From Gonapodya prolifera JEL478 (lineage: Eukaryota; Monoblepharomycota; Monoblepharidomycetes; Monoblepharidales; Gonapodyaceae): a stretch of 64,000 nt of DNA. Made by a program: the position numbers and the translations under genes. The stretch covers positions 1 to 64,000 of the forward strand of contig KQ965865.1 in assembly GCA_001574975.1 (NCBI GenBank). Reading direction: 5' to 3'. The notes beneath the pieces were generated by a model. That model saw only the letters and a program-made list of their open reading frames with translations, was not told the origin of the DNA and did no database searches. Of this stretch, positions 57,614 to 64,000 are shown in pieces (position 1 is the first letter of the stretch; every line of letters starts with the position of its first letter).

Positions 57614-60600
57614 ATGAAACTCGAGCGCCAAATCAAGCTGCGGTGCGTTTATCTCGCCACCCACGCTGTCCCACCTAGCTCACCTGGTCGCCGCAAACTT
57701 CCAGCCTCGTCCTGCCTGTCGTCCTGGGCATGCTCGTGCTGGGTGGGAATGGAGGTCATTTTTTCTGTACCAGAATCCTCCTTACCATTTGCATCAACCG
57801 CAGGCGCTGCCACAGTCGCGCTGATTTACACGCAGTCCTCGTCGTGGATTGACGAACTGGCATCCATCATCGATGACTTACAAGTGCGTCAACCCAAGAG
57901 ATCTTGTCCTCTCCTGTATTCCAACACCTCTAATGTTTGAATTCATGTCGAACCAACATTCATGAATCCTCAACGCACCAGATCGCAGCCGTCCAGTCCC
58001 GTGCATACGGCAAGGCCTCATTCGTCCAGTCGTTTGTCTCTTCTTTCGTCCTCGACGTGCGAGTGCTTGCTCTCTATGCCGCCGCGGCCACTCGGGGGAC
58101 GCTTGGGACAATTGCGCGGTACGTTCGATTCCCACAATCCTCCTCACCGTGTACTCACCTCGATCTCTCCCCCCGCGCTCTTCCCAACCTTGGCGTAACA
58201 CGGTTCCATGCCTCTCGTAACCCGCCCGCCCGACTCCCGCCACCACAGACCCATCCCGTCATTCTTCCAGCTCCCACTGCTCGACTCGCCTTCCGTCGCC
58301 ACACCCATGCCGCCCGAGACGTCACGCCCTCTGTACTCGTCGTACTGGTCCGTCAACATATCTACCTCGGCTGACCTTGCCGCTGCGGCCAGCTCGAGCA
58401 TGAACAGCTCCGTTCTTGATATGGCGTTCAGACCGTTGTTCCTTGACAAGGTGAGTCGGACATTGAGTGTAAACCTTGGAGTGGAGAAATGGGGAAAGAG
58501 GGGATGTGCGTTGATGGTGTGGGGAAGAGGATGCAGGAATTCCACGGAGATGACTATGAAATGAGATGGCCCCTGAAAGGGCATCAAGTTCCACGCATTA
58601 CATGTCCTCTGAGACCAGAGAGACTGAAAGCTCGACCGTCTCCTCTCTTCCTTATCCCACCATAAACCCTCACCTCCCCACAGCCCGGCACGAACCAACT
58701 CTACACCGGCTTCTCGGACACCGGCATGCGGATATTTCCTTACAAATTCGACTCGTCCCTCAACGCCTCCTTCCGCACCCAACGGTTCTGCGACGCGCCC
58801 GATCTGGACCCGTCCGTACGGGGTAAAGTTGGGTTCATCCCGGCGTGTCGCCGGTGGTACAGATCTGCTATTGATGCGGTGCGGAACGCGTCCAGCGCGA
58901 GCGCGAGCACGGGCAGTAGCGTCGATGGTATCGGGCCGTGGGTTGTTGTGTCGCCGTATGTGGACGCGACTACGGGGAAAGTGATGTGAGTACGCACCGT
59001 TCTGGGTCGTTGGAGTACCGGCACCACAAGATCCTGACAATCGCCGTTTCGGGGAATGGGCACTCGTTTGAAGCATCTCGGCATCGCAGGCATTCCTCGA
59101 CGCGCGCGGAGCCGTCGCCGGCGTGGCAGCGCTGGACGCCAACATGGACTTGTTCCTGGCGACGTTTTCGCAGAGCAGCAAGGTGGAGTGTGCGCTCCGT
59201 GTTGGGTCTAGTGCACCCAGTGGTCTCATTTGTGCGCTTCTATAACGCGGGCCACGGGATTGACAGATCTTGGAAAATGGGTACTTGCTGGTTATGGACA
59301 CGACGGGGAATCTTATCGTCTAGTGAGTGCTCCCACAAGTCCACCCAAACACCCTAGCCACCCTCACACCCAAAAATACCCACCCAACCACCCAGCGACC
59401 AGGCCCAAGCCCAATCCAAAAACATCTCCATCTACTCCTCCATCACCAACATCCTCTCCACCGACTTCCCAGGGGACGCGCCTTCCGCTGCGGCCTTCCT
59501 CGCGCTGGCGCAGCAATCGGCCACTGCAGGGACCTCCACGACGTTCCTCCGCGGGGGCCGCCTGTGGCGCCTCGCGGCGACGGGGGTCCCGGACACGTCG
59601 TACCTCGTTGTCGCCCTCGTGCCCATATCCGACCTACGTGCCCTGTCGGACTCCATGCGGGCAAAGACTGCCACATTTGGCGCGGCGGCGACGGGGGTAA
59701 CTGCGGTGCTGCTGGTGGTCGCAGCATTCGTAGCGAATAGGGTCAGCACCTGGATTGCAGAAAGGGTGCTGAAGCCCGTCAAAAATCTTACAGAGTTTGT
59801 CGAGCGCGTCACGTCGGGAAATTTGGATCAAGAGCCTATTGTGAGTGCGGTGTGGTGCGGTTGTATGCGGTCCATTGGTAACGATGACCGTCCTGCTCCC
59901 TAATTCCCACCCCTTGACAACCAGAACTATGGGCCCGTCAATACAGAGATCGACGCCATCGGTAAGAACTTCCGCGAGCTTTTGGTGGCAATGCGGTTTG
60001 GCAACACGGCGTACTACGCGGGTGATCTCAACAAGGCCCTTGACAGCGTGAGTGCTTTGTGTGTGGGGCCTTTTATCGGGAAGTGTGCTGAGTCGCTCTC
60101 TCGCGGGCTCCGCATGCCAGTATCTGGCCGCGGAGAGGGTCATGACGGAATTCAATTCGGAGAGAGGAAAAGGAGTCTGTTGGAACAACCTTGGCAACGT
60201 GTACTCCCAGATGGGCAGGTAGGTTCGCTACTCTCCAGGAATACCTGTAAAGGTTTGTTCGGGAAGTTTTGAAGATCAACGCTCCATAACTGTTAGGTTT
60301 GATCTAGCCCTAAACCATTACAATAAGGCCATTGACAGCGGTAGGTGTTGCGTTTATGATGGCCTCTACCGCAACTTAAAAACCCTGCCTCCCAGCGGAA
60401 CGCCTTCTTGCCGCCGAACAAGACCTCACCAAGCGAAACGATCTGCACAGCACGCTAGCAGAGCGACTCATGAACAAGGGCGTACTTTTCAAGGTCACAA
60501 ACAAGCCACCCGAGCAGTCTGTGGCGTTATTCGAGCGGGCGATAGAGCTACACCGGCATAACGACAGCGTTGATGGAATTGCGCAGGTGTCGGGGAACTT

Positions 60601-61808
60601 GGGCCAGCTGTACCTGGAGCGCAAAACCTTGCCCAAGGCTGAGGAGTGCATTAAGAACGCGTATACCGAAATCAAGGACAGGCAGAGGCCTGTGGCGTTG
60701 CAATACGCGGCAATGAACATGTAAGTGACTCGTGTGACCTGTGGCGTGGGAAGAACGGACTTTGACTGTTGAGAACAGGGGTCTTCTTGCTGACGCTCAA
60801 GGCCTTCAGGAAGAAGCACTAGCGTGGTTCTTATGTGAGCAACCCGAAATGCGGTAATTTGCTTTCTGTTTGCCCTAATTCTCGAAATCAAAACCATGTT
60901 TGAAAGATGTGCTCCAGCGCTTTGAAGTCTCTGTCCATTACGTGCAGAAAAAGTGCACACAGGAAGTGATTCGGCTCTGTCAGGATCCCGCGATCAACAA
61001 GCCCGACATAGCTCAAGCGGTGTATAAAGTTGGCCGATCACTCTTTCCTGACCTTGCCATACTCCCTGGGGCCGCTGGTGCACCAGGACCAAGCGGCTCA
61101 AGCCAAGGAACCACTCACATTGATTCACAAGCTAATGTACGTGTTCATTTATTAACTTGCATCGCTGCCAAAAATCACGGTCTTCGTTTTCGGATGCAGG
61201 CACAGATGCGCATGCTCATGGCGGGGAGCAAGGACCTTGCATTCACCTTGGATGTTTCTGGCTCCATGAGCGGCACGTTCATTCATCAATGCCGCACCTC
61301 TATCAACGAAATCATTGACAGTCACTGCGGACAAAATGATCTCGTGGCGCTTCTTGTGTTCGACAACACAGTAAGGCAAGTGTTCGACTGGACGTTTGCA
61401 ACCGACGGACAGAAAGCAGTCATGCGCAATCTCGTTAACAACGACACCCGAATTGGAGGAAGCACTGCATTCTGGGATGCACTTGTGGCCACCGCTCGGC
61501 GCATGGCGAAAGTTAAAGATCACAAAGGCCGCTCGCTCTGGATCTGCACCCTCACTGACGGAGGCGACAACGCGTCAAGGAGCACGTCTACCAGTGTCAT
61601 CGCGGAACTCAAAAAGTTACCTCAGGTGGGCCTCATCGCCATCACGGTCGGAGTACTCAGCAACGAGGCGGAGATTCGCAGAGTGTGCGAGGCCAGCCGT
61701 AATCGGGGTCTTTTCATTCGCGCCGAAGCGTCTGGGCAGGGCATCCAGACCGCTTTTAGGGCCGCGATTCAACACATGGAGGATTATGCAGTCCAGCAGT
61801 TCACCTGA
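57614..61808 (+). CDS. Transmembrane sensor: dCache, HAMP, TPR repeats and vWA domain
   Basis: The start ATG 57614 gives MKLERQIKLR, spliced to a first transmembrane helix (LVLPVVLGMLVLGG). Next comes an extracellular region of about 450 residues with the dCache pattern: a long N-terminal helix (SSSWIDELASIIDDL), RWYRSAIDA, GPWVVVSPYVDATTGKVMILTIAV, VAALDANMDLF, and LLVMDTTGNLIVYD. A second helix (TGVTAVLLVVAAFVANRV, about 59700) leads into a HAMP linker (VLKPVKNLTEFVERVTSGNL ... FRELLVAMR). TPR-like repeats follow (WNNLGNVYSQMGRFDLALNHY, VSGNLGQLYLERKTLPKAEE). Last is a vWA domain with a complete MIDAS: DVSGSMSG (61251), Thr in GGSTAFWDAL, Asp in LTDGGDN. Stop is at 61808. About 15 introns; about 1,050-1,100 residues. 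It has no kinase, cyclase or methyl-accepting output, so the vWA probably signals by metal-dependent binding. Ligand unknown. Confidence 0.82.
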
Positions 61809-63193
61809 ACATACGTTTTTTATGTGTACATGTGCTCTCTCCCTTCTTCTTTTAATCTTGAAGTACATGAATTTTCTATGGCCTTTCAGAATTCGTCACG
61901 AAAAAGGGGAAGGGGTGACGGGAGAGAGATTTGTTTGGGCACGTGTAATAATGTTCGAAATGAAGGCGCAATCTTTCTTACACTTCATTGCTGCACAACC
62001 GGCATTTCAAAAAAGTGCGACATCGTCGGCGGCGCGTTGAGAGAACGCTGCGATAGATCAACATCCCTCGAAAATCAAAGCAGCAACCTCGAGAGCTGTT
62101 GCTTTGTCGTCAGGACGTATGAGTCGTCGGTAACAACAACATGTTGGAACGCCAACACGCCAGAAAGCACCCCTCGCCGAAAAGGAAGAGTGCCCGGGCA
62201 TCCCCCCTTGCTGAGTCTGCTTGGGGCTTTCCATGCACAGTCAGTCAGCGGGGACCGCTTCATGGCTCTGTCGTGGCGGGATACGGGCTGCAGAGGACGA
62301 CAAGATCCAAGGGAAACCGCGGATTTTAAGACTCTGCGCGAGTCCGCGTTGCTCACAAGGCGACGCGGCTCTCTTTGGGAATGTTTTGGTGGCCTTCAAT
62401 ATCATGTACCTGCAACCCAAACATCTCGGCTTTCAGAGTGATGAGCGCCGCCATCAATGGGGAACATGTTAAAGATGAGTATCACTGTTTGGGGGTGAAA
62501 TCTGCTGCATGTTCGAGGCGACGTTTTCGGTGAGGATTCATGACCGGTAGCACCTGAGTGCGCCGGCGCCGGAGTCGGACTAGATGGTAACTCCCCCTCG
62601 AGGGGTACGCCCGTGGACGCCTCCGCTGACCAAGTCACGTTGGGGTCGGTCATGGATTGGCTGGCTCATTCATGGCCACCACACTGACGATGAAGCCTTG
62701 GATGGCAGCACTGATGGGAGATGGTGTTGCGTTGGTAATTCTTTGCGACAACGTAGCTCTGACCATCCATACTTTTTTTTTTTTTGGTTTTTTTTGGGGG
62801 GGTGGGGAATGGGTGAGGGGCTCCTCTCCCTCTTGTCGTGGACGCGGCTCTCTCTGGAATGTGTCGAGGGAATCATTGCACGCGGGAGTTGAAAAAAGAC
62901 GGTTGAATGTGGATGGAAGACCTGAAAGGGTAAGTTTAATGAAGGTTGGACGTCTTAGGTTGTGATCCTCACTCCATGCAAACTTGTGTTGAAGCGACGG
63001 AGATCATTAATGGATTACATATTCGAGAATGGAATTGAATTATATGGACGCTGAAATAAACGTTCTCATATGCCCTAGGCATGAGTAATAACAGAATGCG
63101 CACAGTCCTCAACAGTGTATGAAGAGCCGATGCTACATATCACCAACAATTGCATTTAATTCGATTACAGTGAAAAGAGAATAAGAACCGACA
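61809..63193. other. 1.4 kb intergenic region between two convergent sensor genes
   Basis: No supportable gene. Open frames on both strands (for example + 61824-62441 and - 62075-62356) have no domain signal, and their codon usage is unlike that of the neighbours. A T-run followed by a G-run lies at about 62767-62805. It contains the 3' ends of both flanking transcripts. Confidence 0.45.
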
Positions 63194-64000
63194 TTAGGCG
63201 GCTGAGCCTGGCGTACCACTCTCTGGCGATTCGGCAGCTTCATAAGACGGGGGTGGGAGGTCGGGCACCTTGTCTACAACGTTCTTCGAGTGGACATTGC
63301 TGTTCCAGTCTGGCATCTCACTGTTCTTGTAAAATGGGTTCGCCTTCCCTGCGGGAGCTTTCGTGGTCGCGCGCAGCGTCTCGATCATGGAGTAGAACCT
63401 CTGCGATAGCTCTTCGGTTTCGTCAATACGTGCAAGGGCGATGCCCTTGCCCCCTCCATTGGTGGGGTCGACACCAGCAAACAGGTCGTTTTCGCCTATG
63501 TTGCGGCTGATCTTCTCGGATTCGTGACTGAGACGGACGAGAGGCTGTGCGGCAGAGTTTGCGAGTATGGCCACGGAGGTCTTGAGAGGAAGAAGGAAGG
63601 AGCGGAGCCGGTGTGTAAGGTCGAGCGATGACATTGTGTGGAACGACGTCATGGCACTTACTGAGACAATGATCAGAACGGCCAAGAATATTCCCACTGA
63701 GATGCCGCTGTATGTTGCCAAGATGTTGTTCATCCGCGCTTGAACGTTTTGGACGGGAATGTTGACGAGAGCCATTGGGAATGCTGAAACAGACACGTAT
63801 GAGGGACTCAACTTCCCGTTGGTAATGTTTAGCACTTTGTAGACCTGAAGTCATTGAGCCATGAGCTCCTGCAAGAACGCGAACTCACGCAAGAACAACT
63901 GCCACTTACAACAAGATAGTTGTCGCCAGAACTTGGGTCCTTGTACACTTCCGACGAGGCAACGCCCGAGCTTGCACTTCTCATCCGATCCCAAAGATCG
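63194..64000 (-). CDS. Cache-like receptor fragment with transmembrane helix and PPxY tail (5' part outside window)
   Basis: The N-terminal part lies beyond the right edge. The visible protein, reading leftward, starts DLWDRMRSASSGVASSEVYK and SGDNYLVVYKVLN, joined across an intron at about 63841-63912. The end of an extracellular alpha/beta domain follows (SYVSVSAFPMALVNIPVQNV), like the membrane-proximal half of a Cache domain. Next are a transmembrane helix (GISVGIFLAVLIIVSVSAMT) and a helical juxtamembrane region (FLLPLKTSVAILANSAAQPL), possibly HAMP-like but not certain. A second helix (ELSQRFYSMIETLRATT) and a disordered tail with DLPPPSYEA end at TAA 63194. PPSY is a PPxY motif, the ligand of WW domains such as those in Nedd4/Rsp5 ubiquitin ligases. 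It has no catalytic output domain and lies tail-to-tail with the dCache-vWA gene. Confidence 0.7.

What the first reader, a model, noticed from the sequence alone, without database searches (positions are those of the whole stretch)
57614..61808. Receptor joining a bacterial-style dCache-HAMP sensor to intracellular TPR and vWA domains
The sequence shows two membrane helices, a large extracellular alpha/beta region, a HAMP-like linker, TPR-like repeats and a vWA domain with a full MIDAS (DxSxS, Thr, Asp). Known Cache-HAMP proteins normally feed into methyl-accepting, histidine-kinase or cyclase domains. The animal proteins that combine vWA with Cache (alpha2delta, CACHD1) keep both outside the cell. 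Here the vWA lies after the second membrane helix and so should be inside, where it could bind partners in a metal- and ligand-dependent way. In a zoosporic fungus this could serve chemotaxis or nutrient sensing. That role is inference.
Basis: partly seen in the sequence, partly recalled or inferred. Interest (0 to 1): 0.8.

Follow-up and report, generated by a model that had tools for sequence, protein, structure and literature searches.

The report
Fungal receptor shared with Asgard archaea
A fungus carries a membrane sensor, with a probable partner gene next door, whose closest full-length relatives outside aquatic fungi are found in Asgard archaea, the microbes thought nearest to the ancestor of complex cells.

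Summary
Window 57614-61808 (+) is one 16-exon gene, every intron GT-AG, for a 960-residue protein: TM1, extracellular dCache, TM2, HAMP, TPR superhelix, vWA with all five MIDAS residues. A Gonapodya protein is 85% identical. Of 56 fetched Asgard Cache-bearing receptor genes, 55 are followed (median gap 12 bp) by a second Cache-TM gene without output domain; the exception ends at a contig edge. In Gonapodya the next gene (63194 onward, minus strand) is also a Cache-TM protein; trees place it with the Asgard partners (99/99, long branch, other placements not excluded). Best reading: a two-gene heteromeric receptor for amino-acid-like ligands that signals by TPR/vWA protein binding, not by an enzyme. 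Architecture, homology and adjacency are shown; ligand, heteromer and output are inferred. Transfer from Asgard or deep inheritance both stay open.

The parts
57614..61808 (+). Receptor gene, 16 exons (57614-57642, 57705-57742, 57804-57883, 57982-58118, 58249-58450, 58684-58985, 59074-59182, 59267-59322, 59396-59840, 59925-60047, 60121-60218, 60297-60340, 60396-60720, 60779-60834, 60907-61136, 61200-61808), 960 aa
   Evidence: GT-AG introns, one open frame; 85% identity over 100% to P0001
57705..57836 (+). TM1, residues about 11-31, preceded by a basic N-terminus (inside)
   Evidence: hydropathy
57837..59670 (+). Extracellular dCache domain, residues about 34-409 (spliced)
   Evidence: relatives above the Pfam cut-off
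58834..59137 (+). Positions equivalent to the amino-acid-binding motif: F213 (Y in the motif), R218, W220, Y221, Y254, D284; Cys pair C198/C217 (C198 lies just upstream)
   Evidence: motif residues as given in passages of PMC10104139
59676..59732 (+). TM2, residues 412-430
59751..59984 (+). HAMP-like linker, residues 437-486 (spliced)
   Evidence: 22.5 bits, under the cut-off; continuous helix
59991..61010 (+). TPR superhelix, residues about 489-715 (spliced)
61233..61727 (+). vWA domain, residues 770-934, MIDAS D776/S778/S780/T847/D878
63194..64000 (-). 3' part of the neighbouring candidate partner gene (exons 63194-63844 and 63910-64623; further exons 64683-64836 and 64902-65098 lie beyond the window, read in L002): 571 aa, TM-dCache-TM and a cytoplasmic tail that looks HAMP-like by eye (Pfam reports no HAMP there) and holds a PPPSY motif near its end; no output domain
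   Evidence: TM helices judged by eye

Best explanation
The gene encodes the signalling subunit of a two-gene transmembrane receptor shared by zoosporic fungi and Asgard archaea. SHOWN: the subunit is dCache-TM-HAMP-TPR-vWA; it is homologous end to end to an Asgard family; in the fetched Asgard loci it is encoded in tandem with a second Cache-TM protein that lacks an output; Gonapodya has a Cache-TM protein right beside it that groups with the Asgard partners in trees. INFERRED: the two Cache proteins form a heteromer through their Cache stalks and HAMP coils; the outer pockets bind amino acids or similar small zwitterions (window protein 5 of 6 motif positions with a conservative Y-to-F, neighbour 6 of 6 by pattern); binding shifts TM2 and HAMP; this changes the TPR-vWA unit, which binds a cytoplasmic target through the TPR groove and a Mg-dependent MIDAS contact. 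Output is thus regulated protein binding, not phosphorylation or a cyclic nucleotide. In fungi this could feed nutrient sensing or zoospore behaviour; that last step is a guess.
For: Gene and domains. Relatives: P0001; 13 fungal proteins including P0001, 12 of 13 with a listed Cache domain (P0128, 545 aa, has none; P0126 has part of one); 157 proteins at E<=1e-5 to P0002 (120 listed; the organism names visible there are all Asgard); 95 of 227 Asgard-phylum genomes match at E<=1e-15 (some only in part). Full-length tree: 14 fungal + 2 unnamed metagenomic rows against 37 rows taken as Asgard, 100/100. Pair: 55 of 56 fetched Asgard Cache receptors (54 genomes) have the partner downstream on the same strand, median gap 12 bp; four Cache-less 575-577-aa copies (L093-L096) lack it (L096 has only 518 bp downstream). 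Gonapodya neighbour: groups with 28 Asgard partners (100/100; 99/99 with 7 bacterial dCache rows added); grouping with fungal receptors is rejected (AU p 0.00024); best blastp match among the Asgard ORFs is a partner (84 bits). A PF02743 search of the own genome found one locus at E<=1e-3, this neighbour gene; falling within 5 kb of the receptor by chance is about 2e-4 of the genome (own arithmetic, 10 kb of 47.6 Mb). Ligand: motif residues as described in PMC10104139 passages.
Against: No transcript, protein or ligand data. The Gonapodya neighbour sits on a very long branch (2.3-2.4); a tree with Asgard partners as a group without it (AU p 0.15) or with it joined to bacterial dCache rows (p 0.10) is not rejected; with bacteria added its place among the partners is unresolved. 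In pairwise scores it matches Asgard receptors nearly as well as partners, and Pfam finds no HAMP in it. The Gonapodya pair is convergent with 1385 bp between, unlike the tandem archaeal pair, and adjacency could not be tested in any other fungus. The amino-acid motif is not constant: the Asp is Gln or Ala in 6 of 11 fungal rows, Trp is Phe in 3 of 11, and the Arg is Glu in the 7 Thor-type rows and in L007 (Asn in P0137), so ligands differ or the pocket is lost in places. pTM 0.46: the domains' relative placement is not reliable. Heteromer, TPR groove and MIDAS binding are untested.
Confidence: 0.6

Rival explanations
1. Origin by horizontal transfer: an ancestor of zoosporic fungi took up the Asgard two-gene block, gained introns and kept the genes side by side.
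For: Receptors lie within the Asgard receptors beside the Heimdall/Hod group when bacterial dCache rows root the tree (94/86, just short of the tool's mark of 95; 90/76 unrooted); named eukaryotic hits are fungi only although source tags include nr; the two genes are adjacent in Gonapodya.
Against: Fungal and Asgard sequences are far apart (about 21-33% identity), with long stems; two unnamed metagenomic proteins branch between them; orientation differs.
Confidence: 0.5
2. Origin by descent: the receptor came with the Asgard ancestor of eukaryotes and was lost almost everywhere except in zoosporic fungi and perhaps unsampled protists.
For: Nearest Asgard rows include Heimdallarchaeota and Hodarchaeales, the group widely held closest to eukaryotes (recalled); P0134 and P0138 sit between fungi and Asgard and share the fungal Cys pair.
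Against: Would need very many losses, and linkage kept or regained since eukaryote origins; no named eukaryote outside fungi was hit, the one word-limited search aimed at them.
Confidence: 0.25
3. Convergent assembly: fungi and Asgard independently joined common Cache, TPR and vWA modules.
For: Each module is common alone: searches list partial matches (Cache-HAMP, TPR or vWA) in 242 of 790 genomes.
Against: Same order and similar length throughout, shared junction R-[FY]-G-N...G-D-L in the 15 rows (looser elsewhere: 10 of 53 tree rows lack the R/QFGN-type motif), full-length match at E 6e-30 in the whole database and E 2e-52 for TPR-vWA to a Heimdall protein, one split in the full-length tree, Cache-only tree agreeing, and the same neighbouring gene type.
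Confidence: 0.04
4. The neighbouring Cache gene is an unrelated chemoreceptor-like gene that landed there by chance; the fungal receptor works alone as a homodimer.
For: Very long branch; AU tests do not exclude placements outside the Asgard partners; convergent orientation; no Pfam HAMP.
Against: 99-100% support for the partner clade; origin as a fungal duplicate rejected; the one Cache locus found in the own genome by Pfam; a match at E<=1e-4 in 1 of 12 control genomes (11 bacterial, 1 archaeal, chosen for vWA or TPR matches and not for Cache content) against 62 of 227 Asgard genomes at the stricter E<=1e-6.
Confidence: 0.25
5. Not a sensor but an assembly, trafficking or adhesion factor, in the way alpha2delta uses Cache and vWA.
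For: The A3 profile matches alpha2delta and CACHD1; vWA-MIDAS commonly mediates complex assembly (PMC9901441 passages).
Against: vWA comes after TM2 and is not extracellular; a HAMP-like TM2 helix is the transmission element of sensors (recalled); the archaeal locus pairs two Cache-TM proteins.
Confidence: 0.15

Closest known systems
Asgard (Thorarchaeota, Heimdallarchaeota, Hodarchaeales and others) proteins annotated 'tetratricopeptide repeat protein' or 'cache domain-containing protein'
   Same: Whole architecture, length about 870-985 aa, MIDAS; adjacent Cache-TM gene
   Different: Single ORFs in tandem pairs; Thor-type rows have Arg-to-Glu at the ligand motif; I found no published function in the searches listed
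Bacterial dCache chemoreceptors such as PctA, Mlp24, PscC
   Same: Extracellular dCache fold with the amino-acid motif positions, TM2, HAMP
   Different: Output is a methyl-accepting signalling domain; here TPR and vWA
Animal alpha2delta and CACHD1
   Same: dCache plus vWA in one protein, MIDAS, profile matches to Cache and, for alpha2delta, vWA
   Different: vWA inserted within the extracellular Cache region; no TPR; no HAMP (recalled)
Cache histidine kinases of fungi (the only fungal Cache proteins reported in PMC4822843 passages)
   Same: Cache sensor in a fungus
   Different: No kinase domain here
Archaeal vWA regulators such as ArnA/ArnB (8s05)
   Different: No Cache or TM (recalled); resemblance of fold only

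Membership tests
Asgard/zoosporic-fungus dCache-HAMP-TPR-vWA receptor family (defined here) | All four modules in this order in one protein, aligned end to end | tested here: met
Asgard/zoosporic-fungus dCache-HAMP-TPR-vWA receptor family (defined here) | Adjacent second Cache-TM gene of the partner type | tested here: inconclusive
   Adjacent Cache-TM gene present; trees favour partner type 99-100% but AU tests leave other placements open
dCache_1 (PF02743) | Score over the Pfam gathering cut-off | tested here: not met
   37.1 bits against 45 for the window protein; relatives score 60.9 and 64.4
dCache_1 (PF02743) | dCache fold | tested here: met
   AlphaFold model of the orthologue P0001 matches 9hvj, 6mni, 6iop, 5ltx dCache domains at E below 1e-6, TM by target 0.61-0.69
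dCache_1AA amino-acid sensors | Y/R/W/Y/Y/D motif (PctA Y121, R126, W128, Y129, Y144, D173) | tested here: inconclusive
   Window F/R/W/Y/Y/D (5 of 6); Gonapodya neighbour Y/R/W/Y/Y/D by pattern
dCache_1AA amino-acid sensors | Binds amino acids | not testable with these tools
   -
HAMP (PF00672) | Score over cut-off | tested here: not met
   22.5 against 25; Heimdall L007 31.2
vWA with MIDAS | vWA profile and DxSxS, T, D | tested here: met
TPR | TPR profile over cut-off | tested here: met
   superhelix
alpha2delta/CACHD1 | vWA extracellular, inserted in the Cache region | tested here: not met
   vWA at 770-934 after TM2 at 412-430; alpha2delta order
Methyl-accepting chemoreceptor | MCP signalling domain | tested here: not met
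   absent among Pfam hits to E 10
Histidine kinase | HisKA/HATPase domain | tested here: not met
   absent among Pfam hits to E 10

The most novel reading that the evidence does not exclude
A complete two-gene receptor, with both subunits still side by side, has been kept from the Asgard-like ancestor of eukaryotes into living zoosporic fungi: a transmembrane nutrient sensor that predates the eukaryotic cell and signals by TPR-vWA binding instead of kinases or GPCRs.
Probability: 0.2. Interest if true: 0.95.

Novelty: new variant of a known kind. Interest (0 to 1): 0.8.

Why it matters
How chytrid zoospores find food and how Asgard archaea sense their surroundings are both poorly known (from general knowledge). 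This family gives one concrete, testable receptor for both. Its sensor half is of a well-understood type, so ligands can be screened; its output half has no known signalling enzyme, so it points to a different way of passing a signal across a membrane. The shared protein and the shared kind of neighbour between archaea and a fungus give a rare case in which transfer and deep inheritance of a whole receptor system can be told apart by sampling more protists.

Tried and rejected
Considered and rejected: (1) two genes fused by mis-prediction: excluded by colinear relatives. (2) Archaeal contamination of the assembly: the gene has 15 spliceosomal-type introns and a Gonapodya orthologue. (3) A giant-virus route: a scan of viral contigs with A3 found no relative (20 stretches matched the pattern, none confirmed). 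(4) Plasmid-borne relatives of the neighbour protein: 2 records with short matches. (5) A second Gonapodya receptor: a vWA piece at G000:C44:215934-216224 (41% to P0122) could not be fetched, so it is undescribed. (6) VIA-align rows covered mostly the vWA, so they say little about the Cache. (7) NCBIfam: 17 families at E<=1, none over its cut-off. (8) Literature: Gonapodya + cache domain 0 papers; at least three of cache domain/vWA/TPR/HAMP 17 papers, 16 listed, none on such a protein by title or abstract start; chytrid + cache domain 1, on GPCRs (passages); Asgard + cache domain 2, listing only; Asgard + von Willebrand + TPR 0; dCache + fungal + eukaryotes + archaea 1, unrelated by title; Asgard + chemoreceptor 14, 10 listed, not read. 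Absence in print is claimed only for these searches of this library. PMC8915833, which defines the amino-acid motif, is not held; the motif is taken from passages of PMC10104139. PMC9901441, PMC3251606 and PMC4822843 were seen as passages only.

Limits of counts: one search lists 120 of 157; searches are word-limited and scored about 8000 candidates each; score only the best few candidates per genome, name no organisms, and the match lists are cut. E-values are for small local sets. In the tree, 15 of 53 receptor rows were dropped for lacking the cutting motif or being short, 6 of 53 were dropped. The 56 receptors are those on loci that I fetched (best matches plus regions picked from its list), two of them broken or cut (L047, L099); the partner profile used was seeded from up to 8 of the downstream genes it then counts. 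Nine further rows under 650 aa (Cache-less or fragments) were left out of the 56: three have the partner gene (L098, L100, L107), six do not (L093-L097, L108). Only one Asgard partner (L004) was scanned with Pfam; neighbouring families were scanned in two copies each.
Full report

Topology. The N-terminus is basic, as is the stretch after TM2; a Cys pair in the Cache is present in all 11 fungal rows that cover it, and sequons are denser in the putative outside part of 13 fungal rows. This is inference from sequence; no experiment was available.

Relatives. The whole protein is 85% identical over its length to HDU93_009324 of Gonapodya sp. JEL0774, which fixes the organism as a close relative and confirms one gene. 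The only other hit of that search, P0002, matches over 93% at 22% identity, E 6e-30. A search with P0002 gave 157 proteins at E<=1e-5; the organism names visible among the 120 listed are all Asgard. Blastp aligns the window protein with these at about 21-25% identity, many from residue 1 to 880-950, others from residue 120-250, and with a Heimdall protein at 27% over residues 125-959.

Spread among prokaryotes. In 227 Asgard-phylum genomes, 95 match at E<=1e-15, many over the whole profile, some only in the TPR or Cache part. In 294 genomes of the phylum of a Methanosarcinales locus, 195 of the phylum of a Corallococcus locus and 301 of the phylum of a Chloroflexi locus, 102, 48 and 92 genomes had matches, but no listed match runs from Cache to vWA: they cover Cache-HAMP, TPR or vWA, a few reaching from one into the next (such as G541, 430-710).

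Tree. A full-length tree of 53 rows splits 14 fungal plus two unnamed metagenomic rows from 37 rows taken as Asgard at 100/100. With bacterial dCache rows as outgroup, the fungal and unnamed receptors lie inside the Asgard receptors, beside the Heimdall/Hod group, at 94/86. That fits either transfer from such an archaeon or descent.

The second gene. Searching Asgard genomes showed that receptor genes are followed by a second gene for a Cache-TM protein of about 490 residues with no further output domain; the one copy scanned has dCache_1 and HAMP over their cut-offs. A count over the fetched loci gives 55 of 56 receptors with the partner on the same strand, median gap 12 bp, the one exception ending at the contig edge. 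Cache-less TPR-vWA copies (L093-L096) have no partner. In Gonapodya the next gene downstream, convergent, stop at 63194, reading back past the window end to 65098 (L002), encodes 571 residues: TM, dCache (36.8 bits, under the cut-off 45), TM, and a tail that looks HAMP-like by eye, though Pfam reports none, with PPPSYEAA near its end. In Cache-only trees it joins the 28 Asgard partners (100/100; 99/99 with bacteria). Joining it to the fungal receptors is rejected (p 0.00024), but placing it outside the Asgard partners (p 0.15) or with the bacterial rows (p 0.10) is not; its branch is long, and in pairwise scores it matches Asgard receptors nearly as well as partners. A Pfam search of the own genome for dCache_1 found only this locus (exon-wise, so a lower bound: the receptor's own Cache was not found that way).

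Neighbours in Asgard. Over 31 loci with flanks, a family of beta-propeller-like proteins, with weak zinc-ribbon hits in the two copies scanned, lies next to or near the pair in 24 and a PLP decarboxylase of the Orn/Arg type in 19. These are leads for the output and the ligand, not proof. The Gonapodya pair instead has pectinesterase genes on one side and a gene with a weak beta-lactamase match, under its cut-off, on the other.

Ligand. Passages of PMC10104139 give residues of the amino-acid motif of dCache_1AA: Y121, R126, W128, Y129, Y144 of PctA and the residue D173, with R126 bonding the ligand carboxylate. The window protein has F/R/W/Y/Y/D and the neighbour Y/R/W/Y/Y/D; among 11 fungal rows that cover the site the Arg is in 11, the Trp in 8 and the Asp in 5; the Arg is Glu in the 7 Thor-type rows and L007. 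So an amino-acid-like ligand is likely for Gonapodya and near kin, and not general to the family.

How it would work. Two Cache proteins pair at the membrane; ligand binding outside moves TM2; HAMP passes this to the TPR-vWA unit; vWA (MIDAS in 27 of 27 rows) and TPR bind or release a cytoplasmic partner. Everything from pairing on is inference.

Compared with the known. Sensor half: known kind. Output half and the two-gene set-up: not found in the library searches listed under Tried and rejected. [quoted passage not shown] Because the sensor type is known, I rate it a new variant of a known kind.

Noticed in passing
L002 5700-10000 (contig positions about 65700-70000, beyond the window): Pectinesterase matches in two gene pieces, and a third similar piece, lie next to the Cache pair.
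   Followed up: partly
P0131 (Podochytrium sp. JEL0797) residues 970-1122: Receptor annotated as Centrin-1: four EF-hands follow the vWA; probably a fused gene model, or a centrin gene next door.
   Followed up: no
P0001 residues about 50-80; window intron 57884-57981: The JEL0774 annotation carries about 31 extra residues where the window has an intron: probable intron retention in the model.
   Followed up: no
G000:C44:215934-216224: A second vWA piece 41% identical to a Nowakowskiella receptor: possible paralogue elsewhere in the genome; could not be fetched.
   Followed up: partly
L093-L096: Shorter Asgard copies with TPR-vWA and no full Cache, 575-577 aa, with no partner gene; L093-L095 have instead a 148-154 aa ORF immediately downstream.
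   Followed up: no
L004, L006, L069-L092, L101-L106: Recurrent beta-propeller-like gene (24 of 31 loci) and Orn/Arg-decarboxylase-type gene (19 of 31) beside the Asgard pair.
   Followed up: partly
neighbour protein (window 63194 onward, minus) residues 552-558: PPPSYEA tail, a PPxY-type motif of the kind bound by WW domains (recalled), absent from the archaeal partner L004 read.
   Followed up: no
window about 62770-62812: Low-complexity run of T followed by G in the spacer between the two genes.
   Followed up: no
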